Shown piece after piece: positions 3,600-41,056 of a DNA stretch of 64,000 bases. Every line of letters starts with the position of its first letter. Within the stretch, counting starts at the first letter, position 1. This stretch comes from Halorubrum sp. CBA1229. GTDB lineage: Archaea; Halobacteriota; Halobacteria; Halobacteriales; Haloferacaceae. Location: NCBI RefSeq assembly GCF_003721435.2, contig NZ_CP054585.1, forward strand, positions 310,001 through 374,000, given 5' to 3'. The position numbers and the translations under genes were made by a program. The notes under the pieces are model-generated. The model was not told where the DNA came from and did not search any database. It worked only from the letters and a program-made list of their open reading frames with translations.

Positions 3600-4066
3600 T
3601 GCCACGATATGCGAGAGTGACGCCCGAAACAGCTCTCAAACTGGGAGGATTCAACACGATGATCACCACTTGCCTCACCACGCGGCGTACTCGTTTTCCC
3701 ATAGCCGTGGGTCTCGTGTTCGGCGAGTGCCTCCAACACCAGTGTGCAAAGAGACCGGGCGCACCCCGCCGGATTCACGTCAACCTCGAATACAAGAGTT
3801 CGACGCACTCCGGCGACGGCCGGACACGCTCTCCCGCATAACTCGACCCCCATACGGACTACCCGTCAGGGGTCGGGGAACACGGGATTGCCGCCTGCCT
3901 TTGCCCAGTACTCGCTCAGTACACAGCGTGATGCGAGTGCGGGGTGCCCGGCTCGCGGCAGATTGGTCTCCGTTCGTTTCGAGAGTGAGACGAACGGACT
4001 CCGTCCGCGCTGAGCGCACGGAGGTCGCAAGCCAATAACCCCGCAGCGAGAGCTGCGGATACGTCG
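3600..4066 (+). ncRNA. Structured leader region without protein gene, upstream of the tRNA-like array
   Basis: No convincing protein is encoded here, but strong hairpins are. CGACCCC (3844-3850) pairs with GGGGTCG (3869-3875) and encloses ACGG/CCGT. An 11-bp stem, 3970-3980 with 3987-3997, has one G-U pair and a GAGAGT loop. CCGCAGC-GAGA-GCTGCGG at 4041-4058 is a perfect 7-bp stem closed by a GNRA-type tetraloop. The hairpins continue without a break into the tRNA-like elements, so this stretch is probably part of the same transcript or holds more diverged RNA units. The assignment rests on visible complementarity, not on a known family. Confidence 0.4.
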
Positions 4067-4141
4067 AGCCCCGGAGTCTCCGCTGGCGAGGGACGCCGGA
4101 CTTTGAATCCGGAGGTCGCCGGTTCGATTCCGGCCGGGGCG
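4067..4141 (+). ncRNA. tRNA-like RNA 1, Gln(TTG)-type anticodon, deviant core
   Basis: A cloverleaf can be drawn. The acceptor is GCCCCG (4068-4073) with CGGGGC (4135-4140). A 5-bp D-stem has GTCTC opposite GGGAC. The anticodon arm is CCGGA-CTTTGAA-TCCGG with TTG at positions 34-36. The T-arm is GCCGG-TTCGATT-CCGGC. Odd points are G instead of the near-universal U at position 8, a 5-bp D-stem with loop CGCTGGCGA, and an A/G mismatch at the top of the acceptor. It shares its unusual D-arm with the element at 5490, which suggests duplication. It could be a diverged tRNA-Gln or a tRNA mimic. Confidence 0.55.
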
Positions 4142-4145
4142 ACAT

Positions 4146-4219
4146 GCCGACGTGGTGTAATCCGGCGAGCATACGGTCCTGTCACGGCCGTGATCCGGGT
4201 TCAAACCCCGGCGTCGGCG
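4146..4219 (+). tRNA. tRNA-Asp(GTC)
   Basis: A complete canonical cloverleaf. The 7-bp acceptor is GCCGACG/CGTCGGC and U8 is present. The D-arm has GG in the loop, the anticodon arm is CGGTC-CTGTCAC-GGCCG, and the T-arm is CCGGG-TTCAAAC-CCCGG. The anticodon GTC at 4181-4183 reads Asp codons. The D and anticodon arms resemble ordinary haloarchaeal tRNA-Asp. CCA is not encoded. It begins only four bases after the preceding tRNA-like element, as in processed arrays. Confidence 0.85.
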
Positions 4220-4248
4220 TAGATGCGTGGCCCGGCCACGTGGGGATA

Positions 4249-4333
4249 CTCATCGAGGTAGGCAGCCCGTTGGTGCGATCAGCTGGATCGTTCCGACGAT
4301 GCTGGGCCCAGCAGGGTCTGCAACCTACATGAG
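4249..4333 (+). ncRNA. Y-RNA-like long hairpin 1
   Basis: The ends of this 85-base segment pair over about 20 positions. CTCAT (4249-4253) pairs with ATGAG (4329-4333), C4254 is bulged, and then GA, GGT, GCAG and CC pair with their partners down to 4315. The distal part folds again: ATCGT-TCCG-ACGAT at 4287-4300 is flanked by CAGC/GCTG. Vertebrate Y RNAs also have end-paired stems with a bulged C followed by GA and GGTAG, and the 5' strand here (TCGAGGTAGG) is similar. Next to a Ro60-like gene this is a good Y RNA candidate. A 6-bp CGTGGC/GCCACG hairpin lies just upstream at 4226-4240. Confidence 0.5.
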
Positions 4334-4382
4334 CCGGTGTGGTATTCCCGGGAACACCCGAAGTACGCCCCCGCGATGAGAC

Positions 4383-4414
4383 GCGCAACCACGACTACTC
4401 GGTCGGGGTTGCGC
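4383..4414 (+). ncRNA. Strong hairpin between Y-like RNA and tRNA-Pro-like element
   Basis: GCGCAACC (4383-4390) pairs perfectly with GGTTGCGC (4407-4414). Across a single A/G mismatch, CGAC (4392-4395) pairs with GTCG (4402-4405), closing the loop TACTCG. A stem this long between tRNA-like units suggests a structured spacer, a processing signal or a separate small RNA. Confidence 0.4.
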
Positions 4415-4467
4415 AGTTGGAAAGTCGTACAGATAGATAATCAACTGCCAAACGCTCGGCAGTCCAG

Positions 4468-4541
4468 TGAGCCGATGGTCCAGCGGACGACGATCTGTGC
4501 CTTGGGCGCACAGGACCGAGGTTCGAATCCTCGCGGCGACA
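4468..4541 (+). ncRNA. tRNA-like RNA, Pro(TGG)-type anticodon, weak acceptor
   Basis: The anticodon arm TGTGC-CTTGGGC-GCACA (4496-4512) and the T-arm CGAGG-TTCGAAT-CCTCG (4517-4533) are perfect. The anticodon is TGG, with T at 33 and G at 37. The D-arm resembles that of the neighbouring tRNA-Tyr. The acceptor is poor: GCCG/CGGC pairs, but the outer three positions do not. It is either a decaying tRNA-Pro or an RNA that keeps the tRNA elbow and anticodon arm for recognition only. Confidence 0.5.
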
Positions 4542-4545
4542 TTTT

Positions 4546-4617
4546 CTCCCTGTGGTCTAACGGCTACGATGCCTCCCTGTAGAGGAGGAGACGCACGTTC
4601 GAGTCGTGCCGGGGAGA
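4546..4617 (+). tRNA. tRNA-Tyr(GTA)
   Basis: A full cloverleaf with acceptor CTCCCTG/CGGGGAG (one U-G pair), anticodon arm CCTCC-CTGTAGA-GGAGG with GTA at 4579-4581, and T-arm GCACG-TTCGAGT-CGTGC. The first pair is C1-G72, which archaeal tyrosyl-tRNA synthetase uses for recognition, and the discriminator is A, so it could be charged with Tyr. It lies four bases from both its neighbours. Its D-stem is weak (G-U and a mismatch), and it does not look like the usual chromosomal haloarchaeal tRNA-Tyr. Confidence 0.75.
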
Positions 4618-4621
4618 CTGC

Positions 4622-4748
4622 GGGACGGTGGAAGAGCCTGGCATTCACACACTCTCGCCGAATTTTCACCGGAGATCCGGTGCGACGGTGAGAGTTCCTT
4701 CATCTCACTTGTAACGAGAACACGCAGGTTCGAATCCTGCCCGTCCCA
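4622..4748 (+). tRNA. tRNA-Thr(TGT)-like gene with a folded insertion
   Basis: The outer parts are tRNA. The acceptor is GGGACGG (4622-4628) with CCGTCCC (4741-4747), then a GAA/TTC D-stem, a TCTCA-CTTGTAA-CGAGA anticodon arm with TGT, and T-arm GCAGG-TTCGAAT-CCTGC. Between the D-arm and the anticodon arm lie about 55 extra bases. These form a 10-bp stem (4651-4660 with 4686-4695) enclosing the perfect hairpin CACCGG-AGAT-CCGGTG (4667-4682). An intron is possible, but the position is not the canonical 37/38 site and TCTC is repeated 50 bases apart at both edges. A tRNA-based scaffold with an extra arm is the alternative. Confidence 0.55.
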
Positions 4749-4782
4749 CTGACCGATGACCCGTTCCAGACGAGGCCACCCC

Positions 4783-4855
4783 GCTCCAGTAGAGTAGCGG
4801 CCAAACTCACGGCCCTCTCACGGCCGAGCCCCCGGTTCGAATCCGGGCTGGAGCA
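4783..4855 (+). tRNA. tRNA-Glu(CTC)
   Basis: A canonical 73-base cloverleaf. The acceptor GCTCCAG/CTGGAGC is perfect, U8-A9 are present, and the D-stem is GAG/CTC with GG in the loop. The anticodon arm is CGGCC-CTCTCAC-GGCCG and the T-arm is CCCGG-TTCGAAT-CCGGG. The anticodon CTC reads GAG. No CCA is encoded. It is one of the best-formed members of the array. Confidence 0.82.
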
Positions 4856-4920
4856 TTCTCCAACAGTCCGAGACCGCTACTTCCAGCCGACGAGACTGAG
4901 GGACGGACAGCTGTGGAGAA
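4856..4920 (+). ncRNA. Y-RNA-like long hairpin 2
   Basis: It starts directly after the tRNA-Glu discriminator. TTCTCCA (4856-4862) pairs with TGGAGAA (4914-4920). After an unpaired A, CAG pairs with CTG, and TCCG (4867-4870) pairs with CGGA (4904-4907) across a bulged CAG on the 3' side. The result is an end-paired stem of about 14 bp with small bulges and a 33-base internal region. The 5' strand includes TCCGA, a string also found in vertebrate Y RNA stems. The role is inferred from shape and context. Confidence 0.42.
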
Positions 4921-4957
4921 CTGAGAGATGCCCATGAGTGAGTTCCGAATTGTGTGC

Positions 4958-5028
4958 TGCGGGATAGGATAATGGCAGTCCACGGGGCTCATATCCCCGA
5001 GGTCCAGGTTCGACTCCTGGTCCCGTAA
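4958..5028 (+). tRNA. tRNA-Met(CAT) or Ile-type CAT tRNA
   Basis: Acceptor TGCGGGA/TCCCGTA has one G-U pair. The D-stem has GGAT opposite GTCC, the anticodon arm is CGGGG-CTCATAT-CCCCG, and the T-arm is CCAGG-TTCGACT-CCTGG. The CAT anticodon suits Met, or Ile if C34 is modified. The U1-A72 start recalls tRNAs carried by viruses rather than the cell's own initiator. It ends 12 bases before the GTG start of the small protein gene. Confidence 0.78.
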
Positions 5029-5040
5029 TGGAGGACAACA

Positions 5041-5445
5041 GTGGGACTATTCGATACAGTCGAACTCTACGACGACGTCCACCTACCGGAGTACCCCGAA
5101 GGGATTACTCCTGCCGAGGACGTCGACTGGCAGACGAAAGGCATCGATCGACCGACTATGACCACATTTCGGATTACGGCGGACGGTCGGCTCCTTGAAG
5201 AGGAGTGGCACACCGAAGCGGTCCCGCCGGAAGATCGACCATACGCGAGCCGAGACGACGTCGACGAGGAAGATCTCCTCTACATGGCCGGCAGTCTGAA
5301 TCGAGTCCACGACGGGTGGATCGAACGAGACGACTACCACGGCCGTTTCGAGCTCACACACTCCGTCGAGGATCTCGATACACTCGTCACGTATCAAGTG
5401 ACGTTCACGCACGGGCAACTCGAGGGCTTCGAACGGCTGCGTTGA
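5041..5445 (+). CDS. Conserved-type small protein embedded in the RNA array (134 aa)
   Basis: The frame begins with GTG at 5041, immediately after the Met tRNA, and ends at TGA 5443. The protein is acidic and apparently soluble. It opens MGLFDTVELYDDVHL and has WQTKGID near residue 37 and FRITADGRLLEEEW near residue 48. I recall an uncharacterised family in prokaryotes and phages with this layout: MG-x-FDT start, a QTK segment, then an ITxDGRL strand. No catalytic motif is visible. Its placement between tRNA-like units on the same strand suggests it belongs to the same transcript and perhaps to the same RNA-protein system. Confidence 0.7.
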   Translation: MGLFDTVELYDDVHLPEYPEGITPAEDVDWQTKGIDRPTMTTFRITADGRLLEEEWHTEAVPPEDRPYASRDDVDEEDLLYMAGSLNRVHDGWIERDDYHGRFELTHSVEDLDTLVTYQVTFTHGQLEGFERLR

Positions 5446-5489
5446 CCCGTGCGTGCCTACAACTCGACACTTGATTTACCCCTTCCAAG

Positions 5490-5565
5490 GCTCCCGGAGT
5501 CTCCGTTGGCGAGAGACGCCACCTCTTCAAGGTGGAGGCCAGGGGTTCGATTCCCCTCGGGAGCA
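5490..5565 (+). ncRNA. tRNA-like RNA 2, Glu(TTC)-type anticodon with altered position 33
   Basis: The acceptor GCTCCCG/CGGGAGC is perfect. The D-stem GTCTC/GAGAC is 5 bp with loop CGTTGGCGA, and the T-arm is AGGGG-TTCGATT-CCCCT. The anticodon arm is CCACC-TCTTCAA-GGTGG, which places TTC at 34-36 but C, not U, at 33. Position 8 is G rather than U. The acceptor end, D-arm and linker closely match the element at 4067. Loss of both U8 and U33 argues against normal ribosomal use and for a tRNA mimic or a diverged viral-type tRNA. Confidence 0.55.
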
Positions 5566-5568
5566 CTC

Positions 5569-5651
5569 GGGGAGCTGGCTCTGACAGCGTTTTCCCGTGT
5601 CTGATATAGCGGGCAGCCACGGGTCCGTGGCGCTGTCACAGTCGGCTCCCC
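5569..5651 (+). ncRNA. Y-RNA-like long hairpin 3 (21-bp end stem)
   Basis: Bases 5569-5589 pair with 5631-5651 over 21 positions with only two G-U wobbles and one C/C mismatch: GGGGAGC, then TGGC opposite its wobble partners, then TGACAGCG. The 41-base loop has further folding, including CCACG-GGTC-CGTGG at 5617-5630. It starts four bases after the Glu-like RNA. A long end-paired stem with a structured loop is the general shape of Y RNAs. Confidence 0.5.
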
Positions 5652-5667
5652 TGCGTGGGGTCGTCAA

Positions 5668-5727
5668 GGTGGTGCGTTCCTTCGCCCGCAAAGCACACCA
5701 ACGGGAGTCATAGCCCGTCGCACCACC
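5668..5727 (+). ncRNA. Reduced tRNA-like element: acceptor-type stem plus anticodon-like hairpin
   Basis: GGTGGTGCG (5668-5676) pairs perfectly with CGCACCACC (5719-5727). Stacked directly on its 3' strand is ACGGG-AGTCATAG-CCCGT (5701-5718), whose loop contains T-CAT-A like a Met anticodon loop but is 8 bases long. The other 24 bases (5677-5700) form no clear arm and there is no T-arm. It looks like a tRNA derivative lacking the T-arm, or a different RNA of convergent shape. Confidence 0.38.
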
Positions 5728-5746
5728 GGTTTCCCGACCGCACGTG

Positions 5747-5809
5747 GCGACCGTCGAGTCGGAGCGTTGCTTCGCCAGGAACTCGCAGGTTCAAATCCTG
5801 TCGGTGGCG
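5747..5809 (+). ncRNA. Reduced tRNA-like element with T-arm but one merged arm
   Basis: Acceptor GCGACCG (5747-5753) pairs with CGGTGGC (5802-5808), with one G/G mismatch. A T-arm GCAGG-TTCAAAT-CCTGT is present. The roughly 31 bases between them can form only one arm, closed by CGAGT/ACTCG and containing GGAGC-GTT-GCTTC, instead of separate D and anticodon arms. A competing hairpin TGGCGA/TCGCCA spans 5745-5777. At 63 bases it is too short for an ordinary archaeal tRNA. Confidence 0.4.
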
Positions 5810-5836
5810 CAGTCCATCGAGAACATCCCGGACAAA

Positions 5837-5897
5837 GAGCGTACGAGAGGACGCTCGACACCGGTCCCGCTCCGACGGTTTTCCGGTCGCCGTGTCG
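5837..5897 (+). ncRNA. Structured spacer with two hairpins
   Basis: GAGCGT-ACGAGAGG-ACGCTC (5837-5856) is a perfect 6-bp hairpin. CGACAC (5856-5861) pairs with GTGTCG (5892-5897), with CGACGG/CCG-type pairing around TTTT inside. There is no tRNA signature. It may be a processing element or another array unit. Confidence 0.3.
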
Positions 5898-5912
5898 CCA
5901 GTGGCCGTCGAT

Positions 5913-5967
5913 CTGGAGCGCTACGTCGATAGCACGCTACGGGGTCGAATCCCGTCTGTCGCTCCAG
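5913..5967 (+). ncRNA. Minimal tRNA-like element (acceptor, mini-arm, T-arm)
   Basis: CTGGAGCG (5913-5920) pairs perfectly with CGCTCCAG (5960-5967). Inside are a small hairpin GCTA-CGTCGA-TAGC (5920-5933) and a T-arm-like hairpin ACGGG-GTCGAAT-CCCGT (5939-5955), where the first loop base is G rather than T. No anticodon arm exists. This 55-base unit resembles the acceptor/T-arm half of a tRNA, which is the part mimicked by bacterial Y RNA tRNA-like modules. Confidence 0.42.
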
Positions 5968-5986
5968 GAATTGTCCGGCCACTTGT

Positions 5987-6061
5987 GTTCCCGTAGCTCA
6001 GTCAGGACAGAGCACCGGCCTTCGAAGCTGGGTGTCGCACGTTCGAATCGTGCCGGGACCC
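5987..6061 (+). tRNA. tRNA-Arg(TCG)
   Basis: A complete cloverleaf with canonical U8-A9, D-arm GCTC/GAGC with GG in the loop, anticodon arm CCGGC-CTTCGAA-GCTGG (anticodon TCG) and T-arm GCACG-TTCGAAT-CGTGC. Acceptor GTTCCCG/CGGGACC has one mismatch at the second pair. The overall sequence recalls bacterial or viral Arg tRNAs. It is the last tRNA of the array, about 115 bases before the TROVE gene. Confidence 0.78.
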
Positions 6062-6062
6062 T

Positions 6063-6165
6063 CCAGCCAAGCGACGCGAGGCTGGGATCGGGGAGTTTCC
6101 CCGTGATACTCGCTGCTCACAGAGCGTGTGGGCATCTGCGGTCGGAGTCGCCTGTTGCGGCTCCG
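6063..6165 (+). promoter_or_regulatory. Hairpin-rich leader of the TROVE gene
   Basis: Three hairpins lie between the Arg tRNA and the TROVE start codon. They are CCAGCC/GGCTGG (6063-6085), CGGGGA-GTT-TCCCCG (6089-6103), and GGAG-t-CGC with GCG-g-CTCC (6144-6165), the last ending nine bases before the ATG. They may separate the RNA array from the mRNA or let the Ro-like protein bind its own message. This function is a guess from position. Confidence 0.35.
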
Positions 6166-6174
6166 GGTGATAGG

Positions 6175-7704
6175 ATGGAATTCAACACGCCAAAGCAAAC
6201 GGTCGCGGAGGCAACGCGGACCACCAACTACGAAGGTGGGGAAGCGTTCGAGCCTGCCGACCCTCGACTGGCATTGTACAAGCGCACGATTAATCAGCTG
6301 CTGGAAGGGTCGTTCTATGAGTCCGATGACGAGCAGTTGGCTGCTGTCGTTCACCGGTTCGACGCCGCCGCAGACGACGACCCGGTGTTCGTCCTGAAGC
6401 TCGCGGCCTACGCGCGGCAAGAGCTCTACTTACGGGACATCCCACAAGTACTGCTCGTGCTGGCAGCCAACGACGACCGGTTCAAAGATGAGTCCGATGA
6501 GTCGGTCATCCGCGAGTGGGCACCGGCGATCATCCAGCGGATGGACGAAACAGCGACCGCGCTGGCTGTCCACGATCAGCTGTTCGGCGGAACTGCGCCG
6601 TGGCCGCTTCGACGCGGGGTCGAGGACGCGCTCGTTGAGATGGCTGACGCCTACACGCTGAGCAAGTACGACCTATCGCGGCGTGAGGTGACGCTGTACG
6701 ACGTCTTCAACCGCGTTCATCCCACGCCCGTCGACGACGAACAGGAAACGCTCTTCGAGCGGTTCATGTACGGCGACCTCGACGACTATCCCGACGTCGA
6801 CTCGTTGCCAGCGCCGAACACGTGGGAGACGGTCATTTCTGAACGTGGCAACACCCGAGACGCCTGGGAACTGCTCATCGAGGACGACGAGTACACGCTA
6901 CCCATCTTCGCGTCGATCCGGAACCTCCGGAATATGCTCGAAGCCGGCGTTCCGGAGGACACCGTCGTGGATCACCTCGACCTGGAGGCCGTCCGACACG
7001 CGCCGCTGTACCCGTTCCGGTACTACCAGGCCTACACCGCGCTGCAAGACGCGGATGTCCAGGCACCGACGGTCGAGCAGTGGCTCGAAGAGGCAATTGA
7101 TGTCGCAGTCGAGACGGTGCCCAACGGATTCGGCGATACCTTCGTCGCGGTCGACCTGTCGGGATCGATGGATCATCCACTGTCCGCGAACAGCACGCTC
7201 CGATTGAAGGAGGTCGGTGCGTTGTTCGGTGCGATCCTAGCCGACCAAGGTGCCGAGGTCGGCGGGTTCGGTGACGACTTCCAGACCGTTCCGATGCACG
7301 TTGACGAACCAGTACTACAGCGTCAAGCGGCGGTGTTGGCCATCGACGATGACGTCGGGAACTCGACAAACGGTTGGAAGGCGATCAAGCACCTCCACGA
7401 CAGCGGTGATACTGTTGAACGGATCGTCGTGTTTACCGATATGCAGATCTGGGACAGCACGCCGTTCACAGCGCGCGATACCCAAACAATCAAGGACGCA
7501 TTCGATGCGTATCGAGACGAGGTGGCTGCGGATACCGCGCTGTATCTCGTCGATCTCGCGGCCTATGGCGACCTCGTGACGCCAGAAGGCTACGAGAACG
7601 TCTACAACATCTCGGGGTGGTCTGAGAACGTCCTCTCGTTCATCGAACACGCCGAGAATCCGACACAGGTCATCGATGAGATCGAGACGTTCGAGCCCTC
7701 GTAA
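6175..7704 (+). CDS. rsr: TROVE-domain / vWA protein, archaeal Ro60 (Rsr) homologue
   Basis: A 509-residue protein. The first 310 residues match the HEAT-like TROVE fold of Ro60: TNYEGGEAF near residue 17, then repeats such as VFVLKLAAYARQELYLRDIPQ. Ro60 is a ring that binds single-stranded ends of misfolded RNA in its hole and Y RNAs on its rim. The C-terminal third is a von Willebrand A domain with a full MIDAS set: DLSGS at 327-331, T398 and D422. Human Ro60 and Deinococcus Rsr are slightly longer. The ATG at 6175 was chosen because longer in-frame starts run through the upstream tRNAs. The gene follows the RNA array on the same strand. It is probably a cytosolic RNA-binding chaperone or RNase adaptor. 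Confidence 0.9.
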   Translation: MEFNTPKQTVAEATRTTNYEGGEAFEPADPRLALYKRTINQLLEGSFYESDDEQLAAVVHRFDAAADDDPVFVLKLAAYARQELYLRDIPQVLLVLAANDDRFKDESDESVIREWAPAIIQRMDETATALAVHDQLFGGTAPWPLRRGVEDALVEMADAYTLSKYDLSRREVTLYDVFNRVHPTPVDDEQETLFERFMYGDLDDYPDVDSLPAPNTWETVISERGNTRDAWELLIEDDEYTLPIFASIRNLRNMLEAGVPEDTVVDHLDLEAVRHAPLYPFRYYQAYTALQDADVQAPTVEQWLEEAIDVAVETVPNGFGDTFVAVDLSGSMDHPLSANSTLRLKEVGALFGAILADQGAEVGGFGDDFQTVPMHVDEPVLQRQAAVLAIDDDVGNSTNGWKAIKHLHDSGDTVERIVVFTDMQIWDSTPFTARDTQTIKDAFDAYRDEVAADTALYLVDLAAYGDLVTPEGYENVYNISGWSENVLSFIEHAENPTQVIDEIETFEPS

Positions 7705-7824: not shown

Positions 7825-8547
7825 ATGCCCTACAGCGACGAGGAGTTGCTTGAGGATATCCGTGCCGTCGCAGCGATCGTCGAGCGAGCGCCCTCCCTGC
7901 AGGATTACCGTGACCACGGCGAGTACGCCGCAACGACGATCACGCGCCGGTTCGACTCGTGGCAGGACGCCGTCGCCCGCGCCGGCTTCGAGCCGCATGC
8001 CGCTGAGAGTGAACTCCCAACGGAAGAGTTGCTCGCCGAACTGCGGCGGCTCGCCGATGACCATGACCAACGCCCGACAGCCGAGCTCATGAACGATGAG
8101 GGCCAGTACTGAGTGTCGACATATCGTCGGCGGTTTGGATCGTGGGCAAACGCGCTTGCCGAAGCCGGCTTTGAGCCCGCAGACGCCCGGACGGCTGCAC
8201 AGATTTCCGAAGCCGACCTCTTGGCAGAACTGGACCGGATGGCCACCGCCAAAGGTGAGACCCCAACGTTCCAGGAGATGGAGACTGACGGCGCGTACAG
8301 TCCACGGACGTATGTCGACCGATTTGGCTCGTGGACCGACGCGCTTGACGCTGCCGGCCTCGAACCCCGCGAGTCCGGCAGAGTGAGCGACGCGGACCTG
8401 CTCACGGAGCTTCGTCGGTTGCGCGATGCGCTCGGTACAGAACCAGTCGCCGATGATGTGCGTGAGCGGGGCGAGTATAGCCTCGCAACGTATCAACGCA
8501 GATTCGGATCCTGGTCAGACGCCAAAGACGCCGCGTTCGACGAGTGA
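7825..8547 (+). pseudogene. Helix-repeat protein (homing-endonuclease-associated repeat type), interrupted by TGA
   Basis: Four repeats of about 55 residues share the pattern LLxELRRL...G-x-Y-S-x-x-TY-x-RRFGSW-x-x-A-x-x-AGFEP, as in the repeats linked to homing endonucleases and found in many haloarchaeal DNA-binding proteins. The first frame stops with TGA at 8110-8112. The same frame resumes at once with VSTYRRRFGSW and runs to 8547. The TGA falls where the sister repeats have Ser (GAYS, GEYS), so a single TCA-to-TGA change explains it. The likely start is ATG 7825. It is either a recent pseudogene, two half-proteins, or a read-through case. Confidence 0.7.
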
Positions 8548-40527: not shown

Positions 40528-41056
40528 ACCCGAGTTCGGGGGACAGACTGGATGGGAATTTGTGCGATGGCGCGCCTCCGAGCGGTCGCCGTCGGCGACC
40601 GCGAGGTGCCCGCGAGGGACGCGGTGAGCGCTCGAAGAGCGCGAACCGCGAGGCTGGGGAGGTGTGAGGCTGCGGTGCCGTGCGGTCGGGTGTGGGACTC
40701 AAAGGGGCAGCCGGGAGGCGGGCGCAGGCGACGAAAGCACTGCAGGGAGCGAGCACCGCGAGCGACTGAAGCGCGCAGCGAGCGTGCGCCCGCCTCCCGG
40801 CTGGGGCTTTGGAGGTGGTCACCGCAGAGTCGTTGATTACGTATCGCCGAGTGGCTGGGGAGTTGGAGGGGTTCTCCGTCGATCCGCAGTCGGCTAGTTA
40901 TAAATGAGCGGCAGGCGGTTCGGCGGTCGGCGCACCCGACCACCCCTCGTTTCGAGACGAGTCGCAACAGCACACGCACCCGACCGCTGCGTGGTATCGG
41001 CCCGCATCGAGCGACGTAACCGCCACGCTTTATTAATCCGCCCGAGTACCGGCGAC
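40528..41056. other. Intergenic region holding structured repeat element A
   Basis: No protein gene is supported here. It contains a long structured repeat (40645-40900) described separately, and CTTTATTAA at 41028-41036, a TATA box centred 25 bases before the hpt start codon. Confidence 0.6.
40645..40900 (+). repeat. Structured interspersed element, copy A
   Basis: Shares with a region at 59155-59365 (reverse strand) the blocks GAGGCTGGGGAGGTGTGAGG, GTGGGACTCAAAGGGGCAG and CTGGGGCTTTGGAGG. Bases 40708-40726 pair perfectly with 40785-40803 (19 bp). They are capped outward by a GGG/GGG internal loop (40705-40707 and 40804-40806) and AAAG/CTTT. The stem sequences differ between copies while pairing is kept. 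It ends near TTATAA at 40899. Confidence 0.7.

What the first reader, a model, noticed from the sequence alone, without database searches (positions are those of the whole stretch)
5569..5651. 21-bp end-paired hairpin RNA inside the array
Bases 5569-5589 and 5631-5651 are complementary at 20 of 21 positions (two wobbles). The hairpin begins four bases after a tRNA-like unit. Such a stem by chance in 83 bases is very unlikely. It has the gross form of a Y RNA and may be a second class of ligand.
Basis: seen in the sequence. Interest (0 to 1): 0.68.

Follow-up and report, generated by a model that had tools for sequence, protein, structure and literature searches.

The report
Motif-less hairpin in archaeal Ro60 array
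The hairpin is a real, evolutionarily conserved RNA structure inside a salt-loving archaeon's tRNA array beside a Ro60-type RNA quality-control gene; it is not itself a Y RNA, but it lies right beside units that look like the first archaeal Y RNAs and probably derives from one of them.

Summary
Confirmed: 5569-5589 and 5631-5651 pair at 20/21 positions (two wobbles, one C·C). The hairpin (U1) folds at -53.6 kcal/mol (z -6.0). It sits 2-3 bases after a tRNA-Glu-like unit, just before the next unit. It is a + strand RNA structure conserved in many haloarchaeal genera: 94% of cells paired, 10/16 pairs with compensatory changes. One copy per array; 28/43 TROVE-positive and 0/348 TROVE-negative genomes.

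The gene beside it (6175-7704) is Ro60 (TROVE + vWA). The three units after U1 (5657-5741, 5747-5890, 5901-5982) share an end-paired stem with a GUCGA/RRUUUUCC internal loop. Some, here and in relatives, carry a circularly permuted tRNA module, the architecture of bacterial YrlA Y RNAs. A tRNA-Thr-like unit (4622-4748) carries the same stem joined the other way round. That stem occurs in 42/43 TROVE genomes and in none without TROVE (>=35 bits).

U1 lacks the motif. One relative has a motif-bearing unit with the same arms at U1's position, and the earliest branches of the U1 clade have 35-nt mini-hairpins. U1 is probably a Y-like unit that lost its Ro60 site. I favour a processing or insulating role over a second ligand. 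Transcription and binding are untested.

The parts
5569..5651 (+). U1: the hairpin of the finding, motif-less end-paired RNA
   Evidence: folds, covaries, single copy per array
5490..5566 (+). tRNA-Glu(UUC)-like unit directly upstream
   Evidence: ARAGORN; Rfam tRNA 32.5 bits at 5499-5565
5657..5741 (+). U2: Ro-motif (Y-RNA-like) unit without tRNA module; outer pairing extends to about 5654-5744
   Evidence: R1 55.4 bits, E 3.7e-12 (in training set A1)
5747..5890 (+). U3: Ro-motif unit with T-arm, capped acceptor-like helix and D-arm-like part (permuted tRNA)
   Evidence: motif script; T-arm GCAGGTTCAAATCCTGT and CGGTGG/CCATCG read directly; not recovered full-length by R1
5901..5982 (+). U4: Ro-motif unit with T-arm only in this genome; relatives have a full permuted tRNA
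   Evidence: R1 46.3 bits; relatives in A5
4622..4748 (+). tRNA-Thr-like unit with the Ro stem inserted after the D-arm, in permuted order (5' and 3' strands swapped, ends joined)
   Evidence: R2 hit 4651-4702, 31.3 bits, not in training; conserved in 21 loci incl. window
5987..6061 (+). tRNA-Arg-like unit closing the array
6175..7704 (+). Ro60/Rsr orthologue: TROVE + vWA (VDLSGSM MIDAS)
   Evidence: PF05731 E 6.5e-19, PF25045 E 5.8e-6, just under its cut-off; phmmer 9l5y/9kop E 3e-32; Foldseek 9kop, 9l5y, 2nvo, 1yvp

Best explanation
U1 is a conserved + strand RNA hairpin in a haloarchaeal Ro60 locus whose array mixes tRNA-like genes with Y-RNA-like units. It occupies the slot of a former Y-RNA-like unit, has lost the Ro60-type internal loop, and was rebuilt as a long near-perfect stem. 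Most likely it works in the precursor transcript as a structural insulator and processing boundary: it folds on its own between the tRNA-Glu-like unit and the Y-like cluster, keeps the two from misfolding into each other, and blocks 3'-5' trimming past the tRNA while the Y-like RNAs are released. Shown by sequence: conservation, strand, structure, position, association with Ro60, absence of the motif. Inferred: descent from a Y-like unit (one intermediate locus plus the tree). Purely inferred: transcription and the insulating role.
For: Stem covariation: 94.1% of cells paired, 10/16 pairs with compensatory changes, slid controls 24-44% (arms aligned by hand). The + strand pairs at 94.1% against 73.9% for the - strand because 55 of 272 cells are G-U, so the transcript in the tRNA direction is what folds. 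Fixed position: linker CTC before it in 27/30 distinct sequences, (A)GCGT after it. One copy per array, single copy in the genome. Present in 28 of 391 genomes, all TROVE-positive. No match to Ro-stem models R1/R2. L045 has, after the same tRNA-Glu end, GGAATC-GATGCC-GTCGA...AGTTTTCC-GGCGTC-GATTCC: the U1 arms with the motif inside (R1 53.9 bits), and L031 has the identical 5' arm GGAATCGATGCC closing a 35-nt hairpin. In the Ro60 tree all U1 loci form one clade (98/94), mini-hairpins L031 and L030 branch first, long forms later. Loops and interior differ between types A-E while the closing stem is kept, as expected if only a stable duplex matters.
Against: No RNA data: transcription, processing sites and function are unmeasured. 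Descent from a Y-like unit rests on one intermediate (L045), which is outside the U1 clade, and on weakly supported inner forks. L033 has both a different hairpin after a tRNA-Glu (5131-5203, z -5.5) and motif-bearing units, so hairpins may arise there independently. Within type A the interior (CCGUGUCUGACAUAGCGGGCAGCCACGG) is nearly constant, which could mean a protein- or RNA-binding role beyond the duplex.
Confidence: 0.5

Rival explanations
1. U1 is a discrete RNA bound by the neighbouring Ro60, a second ligand class that uses the long helix rather than the Y internal loop (for example on the outer surface, as misfolded RNAs do).
For: Strict association with TROVE genomes (28/28), end-paired form, position among Y-like units, near-constant interior within type A.
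Against: Lacks the motif; in vertebrate Y RNAs removing either bulge abolishes Ro60 binding, and the Ro60 channel takes single- but not double-stranded RNA (PMC4726728). Not matched in 15 of 43 TROVE genomes, whereas Ro-motif stems are missing at threshold from only one. Interior sequence not conserved across types.
Confidence: 0.25
2. U1 is an independent small RNA or a folded hairpin bound by another protein, merely co-transmitted with the cassette.
For: Near-constant type A interior; the whole cassette travels between genera and plasmids.
Against: Never found away from a Ro60 array in 391 genomes; sequence differs widely between types.
Confidence: 0.12
3. U1 is a decaying relic of a Y-like unit with no present function.
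For: Motif lost; L045 keeps the motif at the same site; short forms in L030 and L031.
Against: Compensatory changes and a stem that is longer and stronger in later branches are not what decay gives.
Confidence: 0.07
4. U1 is a DNA-level inverted repeat (recombination site, cruciform or protein-binding palindrome).
For: Long inverted repeat in a mobile, patchy cassette.
Against: G-U wobbles are common and are a leading pair type at four of 16 pairs, making the other strand pair only 73.9%; only one copy per array.
Confidence: 0.04

Closest known systems
Bacterial Y RNA YrlA (Rfam RF02553)
   Same: For the neighbours U2-U4: end-paired basal stem with a 5-nt/8-nt asymmetric internal loop (YrlA consensus shown), then in U3 and in relatives' U4 a permuted tRNA module of T-arm, capped acceptor and D-arm; next to an Rsr/Ro60 gene. 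U1 shares only the end-paired long stem.
   Different: Loop sequence GUCGA/RRUUUUCC; far below Rfam gathering score (28.7 against 69 bits); several units per locus inside a tRNA array; archaeal. U1 has neither the internal loop nor the tRNA module.
Vertebrate Y RNAs (Rfam RF00019)
   Same: About 83 nt, 5' and 3' ends paired, variable interior.
   Different: No GGUCCGA with bulged C and opposing 3-nt bulge; no Rfam match.
Archaeal tRNA gene clusters with a TROVE gene (Morgado & Vicente 2019, PMC6333295)
   Same: Same arrays: 20 of 29 archaeal tRNA clusters held a TROVE gene, including some species found here.
   Different: In the passages read (a term search of the main text; supplements not seen) no Y-like RNAs or hairpins are mentioned between the tRNAs.
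Ro60 of Thermus phage phiLo (PDB 9l5y) and D. radiodurans Rsr (PDB 2nvo)
   Same: Fold of the protein encoded beside U1.
   Different: Only 17-24% sequence identity; RNA partners of the haloarchaeal protein unknown.

Membership tests
Y RNA (U1 itself) | 5' and 3' ends paired into a long basal stem | tested here: met
Y RNA (U1 itself) | Ro60-binding internal loop/bulges in the basal stem | tested here: not met
   R1 and R2 with filters off give no match over U1 beyond a trivial 16-nt inner loop and a U1/U2 junction; only a C-C mismatch interrupts the stem
Y RNA (U1 itself) | Encoded next to a Ro60 orthologue | tested here: met
   28/28 U1 genomes are TROVE-positive
Y RNA (U1 itself) | Bound by Ro60 in the cell | not testable with these tools
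   needs co-purification
YrlA-type Y RNA (neighbours U2-U4 and relatives) | Basal stem with conserved asymmetric internal loop | tested here: met
   42 non-redundant units, 98.2% paired, 13/16 pairs with compensatory changes (units were picked by a script that required pairing, so the percentage is partly circular); 5x8 loop as in the YrlA consensus
YrlA-type Y RNA (neighbours U2-U4 and relatives) | tRNA-mimic module: T-arm, acceptor, D-arm in permuted order | tested here: met
   14 U4 units of relatives: 98.4% paired, 14/32 pairs with compensatory changes. In the window: U3 has it by eye, U4 only a T-arm, U2 none
YrlA-type Y RNA (neighbours U2-U4 and relatives) | Reaches the Rfam RF02553 gathering score | tested here: not met
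   best 28.7 bits against 69, though E 1.7e-4 over the full model; window units not matched
YrlA-type Y RNA (neighbours U2-U4 and relatives) | Ro60 binding and expression | not testable with these tools
   no RNA or binding data; only co-occurrence, 42/43 TROVE+ against 0/348 TROVE- genomes at >=35 bits
Ro60/Rsr protein (6175-7704) | TROVE ring plus vWA domain | tested here: met
   Pfam TROVE, vWA_Ro60 just below cut-off, model mean pLDDT 73, Foldseek to 9kop, 9l5y, 2nvo, 1yvp

The most novel reading that the evidence does not exclude
Haloarchaea run a complete Ro60-Y RNA system in which one tRNA array encodes permuted, unpermuted and tRNA-less Y RNAs, and U1 is a separate motif-less ligand or gate that Ro60 binds by helix shape alone.
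Probability: 0.2. Interest if true: 0.85.

Novelty: new variant of a known kind. Interest (0 to 1): 0.62.

Why it matters
I found no report of archaeal Y RNAs in the searchable papers. The units beside this hairpin are candidates, linked to Ro60 by near-perfect co-occurrence over 391 genomes. The array holds the same Ro stem in permuted and unpermuted tRNA mimics, which bears on how Y RNAs relate to tRNAs and on why archaeal plasmids carry tRNA arrays beside a TROVE gene. U1 is a natural control: a unit in the same locus with the form but not the motif, so Ro60 binding to U1 against U2-U4 directly tests what the protein recognises.

Tried and rejected
Rfam at gathering score over the window: only tRNAs and SRP RNA. 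U1 as a permuted Ro stem: rejected by R2. U1 as a repeated unit: no second copy in the arrays or genome. Virus origin: one distant TROVE (30% id, L088) in IMG/VR, without tRNAs or Ro stem. Annotated function on plasmids: 10 records cover >=80% of 5480-6174, none with an annotated feature under it in the listed rows. U1 as simply the decayed counterpart of the motif unit in all arrays: not held, because L033 has a different hairpin and motif units side by side. NCBIfam gave no family for the Ro60 protein. Chen et al. 2014, the main bacterial Y RNA paper, is not in the library.

Full report
Observation. The two arms pair at 20 of 21 positions with two wobbles and one C-C mismatch, and RNAfold closes one hairpin over all 83 bases at -53.6 kcal/mol, z -6.0. 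Chance gives about 0.08 such hairpins per 64 kb. The tRNA-Glu-like unit ends at 5566.

Setting. The window is haloarchaeal. ARAGORN and Rfam find tRNA genes from 4067 to 6061, all +. The reading frame at 6175-7704 matches TROVE (E 6.5e-19) and, just below its cut-off, the Ro60 vWA model. Its nearest solved relatives are TROVE proteins 9l5y and 9kop (E 3e-32). An AlphaFold model (mean pLDDT 73) matches Ro60 of Thermus phage phiLo, D. radiodurans Rsr and Ro autoantigen complexed with RNAs (1yvp). It is a Ro60 orthologue. A TROVE gene in archaeal tRNA clusters was reported in 20 of 29 clusters (PMC6333295).

Relatives. The protein brought in 41 loci from many haloarchaeal genera at 74-93% identity, some on plasmids. 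Among 391 Halobacteria genomes 43 have TROVE, so the cassette is patchy and mobile.

U1 is conserved. An end-paired hairpin follows the same tRNA-Glu end in nearly all loci of the near clade. There are several sequence types: A (window), B, C, D and mini-hairpins E. On 17 distinct outer stems, 94.1% of cells pair and 10 of 16 pairs show compensatory changes; sliding the partner drops pairing to 24-44%. I chose the arm register by hand, and one row (L045) is the motif-bearing homologue. RNAalifold on 18 full-length hairpins independently predicts the same stem, with 7 of 19 pairs compensatory. Because 55 of 272 cells are G-U, the - strand would pair at only 73.9%, so the RNA of the tRNA direction is the selected form. 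A covariance model (R3) finds it once per array, only at this place, once in this genome (the same place also scores weakly on the - strand), and in 28 of 391 genomes, all of them TROVE-positive.

What lies beside it. Units after U1 share a stem: outer helix of 6-7 bp, GUCGA on the 5' side, inner helix of 8-9 bp, NNCUUC, and RRUUUUCC on the 3' side. Forty-two non-redundant units give 98.2% pairing and 13 of 16 pairs with compensatory changes; the finding script demanded pairing, so the percentage is partly circular, but the variety of pair types is not. Rfam's YrlA consensus has the same layout, a 6-bp helix, 5-nt loop, 7-bp helix and 8-nt opposing loop, and aligns end to end with the L034 unit (28.7 bits, E 1.7e-4, below the gathering score of 69). 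In 14 relatives the last unit holds T-arm, capped 7-bp acceptor and D-arm with tRNA invariants, 98.4% paired: a circularly permuted tRNA, in line with the tRNA-like domain described for YrlA (PMC8394870). In the window U3 keeps such a module (read by eye), U4 only a T-arm, U2 none.

Association with Ro60. Model R1 of this stem hits 42 of 43 TROVE genomes at 35 bits or more and none of 348 TROVE-negative genomes; four TROVE-negative genomes give about 29 bits. The one exception, G240, has U3 by the script. R1 was trained on Ro60-linked loci, so hits in close relatives are expected; the informative parts are the absence elsewhere and the hits at the three divergent TROVE genes (G022, G234, G329), which were not in training and carry the stem directly upstream.

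The hybrid tRNA. The tRNA-Thr-like unit 4622-4748 contains the stem with its two strands in swapped order, inserted after the D-arm. Model R2, made by permuting the stem, finds it (31.3 bits) and its counterparts in six other loci although none was in training. R2 also matches across neighbouring units (3' strand of one with 5' strand of the next), which is expected from its construction. The anticodon of the hybrid differs among loci, so decoding is unlikely to be its purpose.

U1 is not one of them. Neither R1 nor R2, run with filters off, matches U1. In known Y RNAs, removing either bulge of the lower stem abolishes Ro60 binding (PMC4726728). Yet L045 has, at the same place after the same tRNA-Glu end, a motif-bearing unit (53.9 bits) whose 5' arm GGAATCGATGCC is identical to the arm of the L031 mini-hairpin. 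In the Ro60 tree, U1 loci form one clade (98/94) with L031 and L030 branching first and long forms later; inner forks are partly weak. The simplest history is: Y-like unit, loss of the motif to a mini-hairpin, regrowth into a long stem. The regrowth speaks against plain decay.

Mechanism. What is conserved is a stable duplex, its place and its single copy, not a loop sequence across types. That suits an element acting in the precursor RNA: an insulator and processing boundary between the tRNA-Glu-like unit and the Y-like cluster. This step is inference. A Ro60 ligand of another type stays possible (0.25). Limits: no expression or binding data; one intermediate locus; L033 shows that another hairpin can follow a tRNA-Glu while motif units remain.

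Noticed in passing
   Followed up: yes
window 4622-4748: tRNA-Thr-like unit with the Ro stem inserted after the D-arm in permuted order; anticodon not conserved among relatives.
   Followed up: partly
window 3964-4027: Two stacked hairpins just before the first tRNA (Gln) that recur before the array in many relatives (z -3.2); possibly a leader element.
   Followed up: no
L089, L090, L091: Divergent TROVE genes with a Ro-motif hairpin (GGGG-CGAG-GGGAGCG ... GGUUUUCCCC) directly upstream.
   Followed up: partly
L093, L095-L100: A tRNA-Gly(gcc) follows the Ro60 gene within a few tens of bases in many relatives but was not found in the window; possible attachment site.
   Followed up: no
window 7825-8547: HNH_repeat (homing-endonuclease-associated repeat) open frames right after Ro60, apparently split by a stop.
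   Followed up: no
L019, L021, L029, L039, L047 (tRNA-Arg before Ro60): tRNA-Arg-like unit carries an insertion of about 55-60 nt (intron-like) that the window copy lacks.
   Followed up: no
L099 3385-4960: U2 appears interrupted by an insertion of about 1.5 kb between its two strands, while U1 and U3 are intact.
   Followed up: no
window 40708-40803: Another long inverted repeat (20/21 pairs), G+C rich, outside the array.
   Followed up: no
L033 5131-5203: A different end-paired hairpin (z -5.5) after another tRNA-Glu, in an array that also has Ro-motif units.
   Followed up: partly
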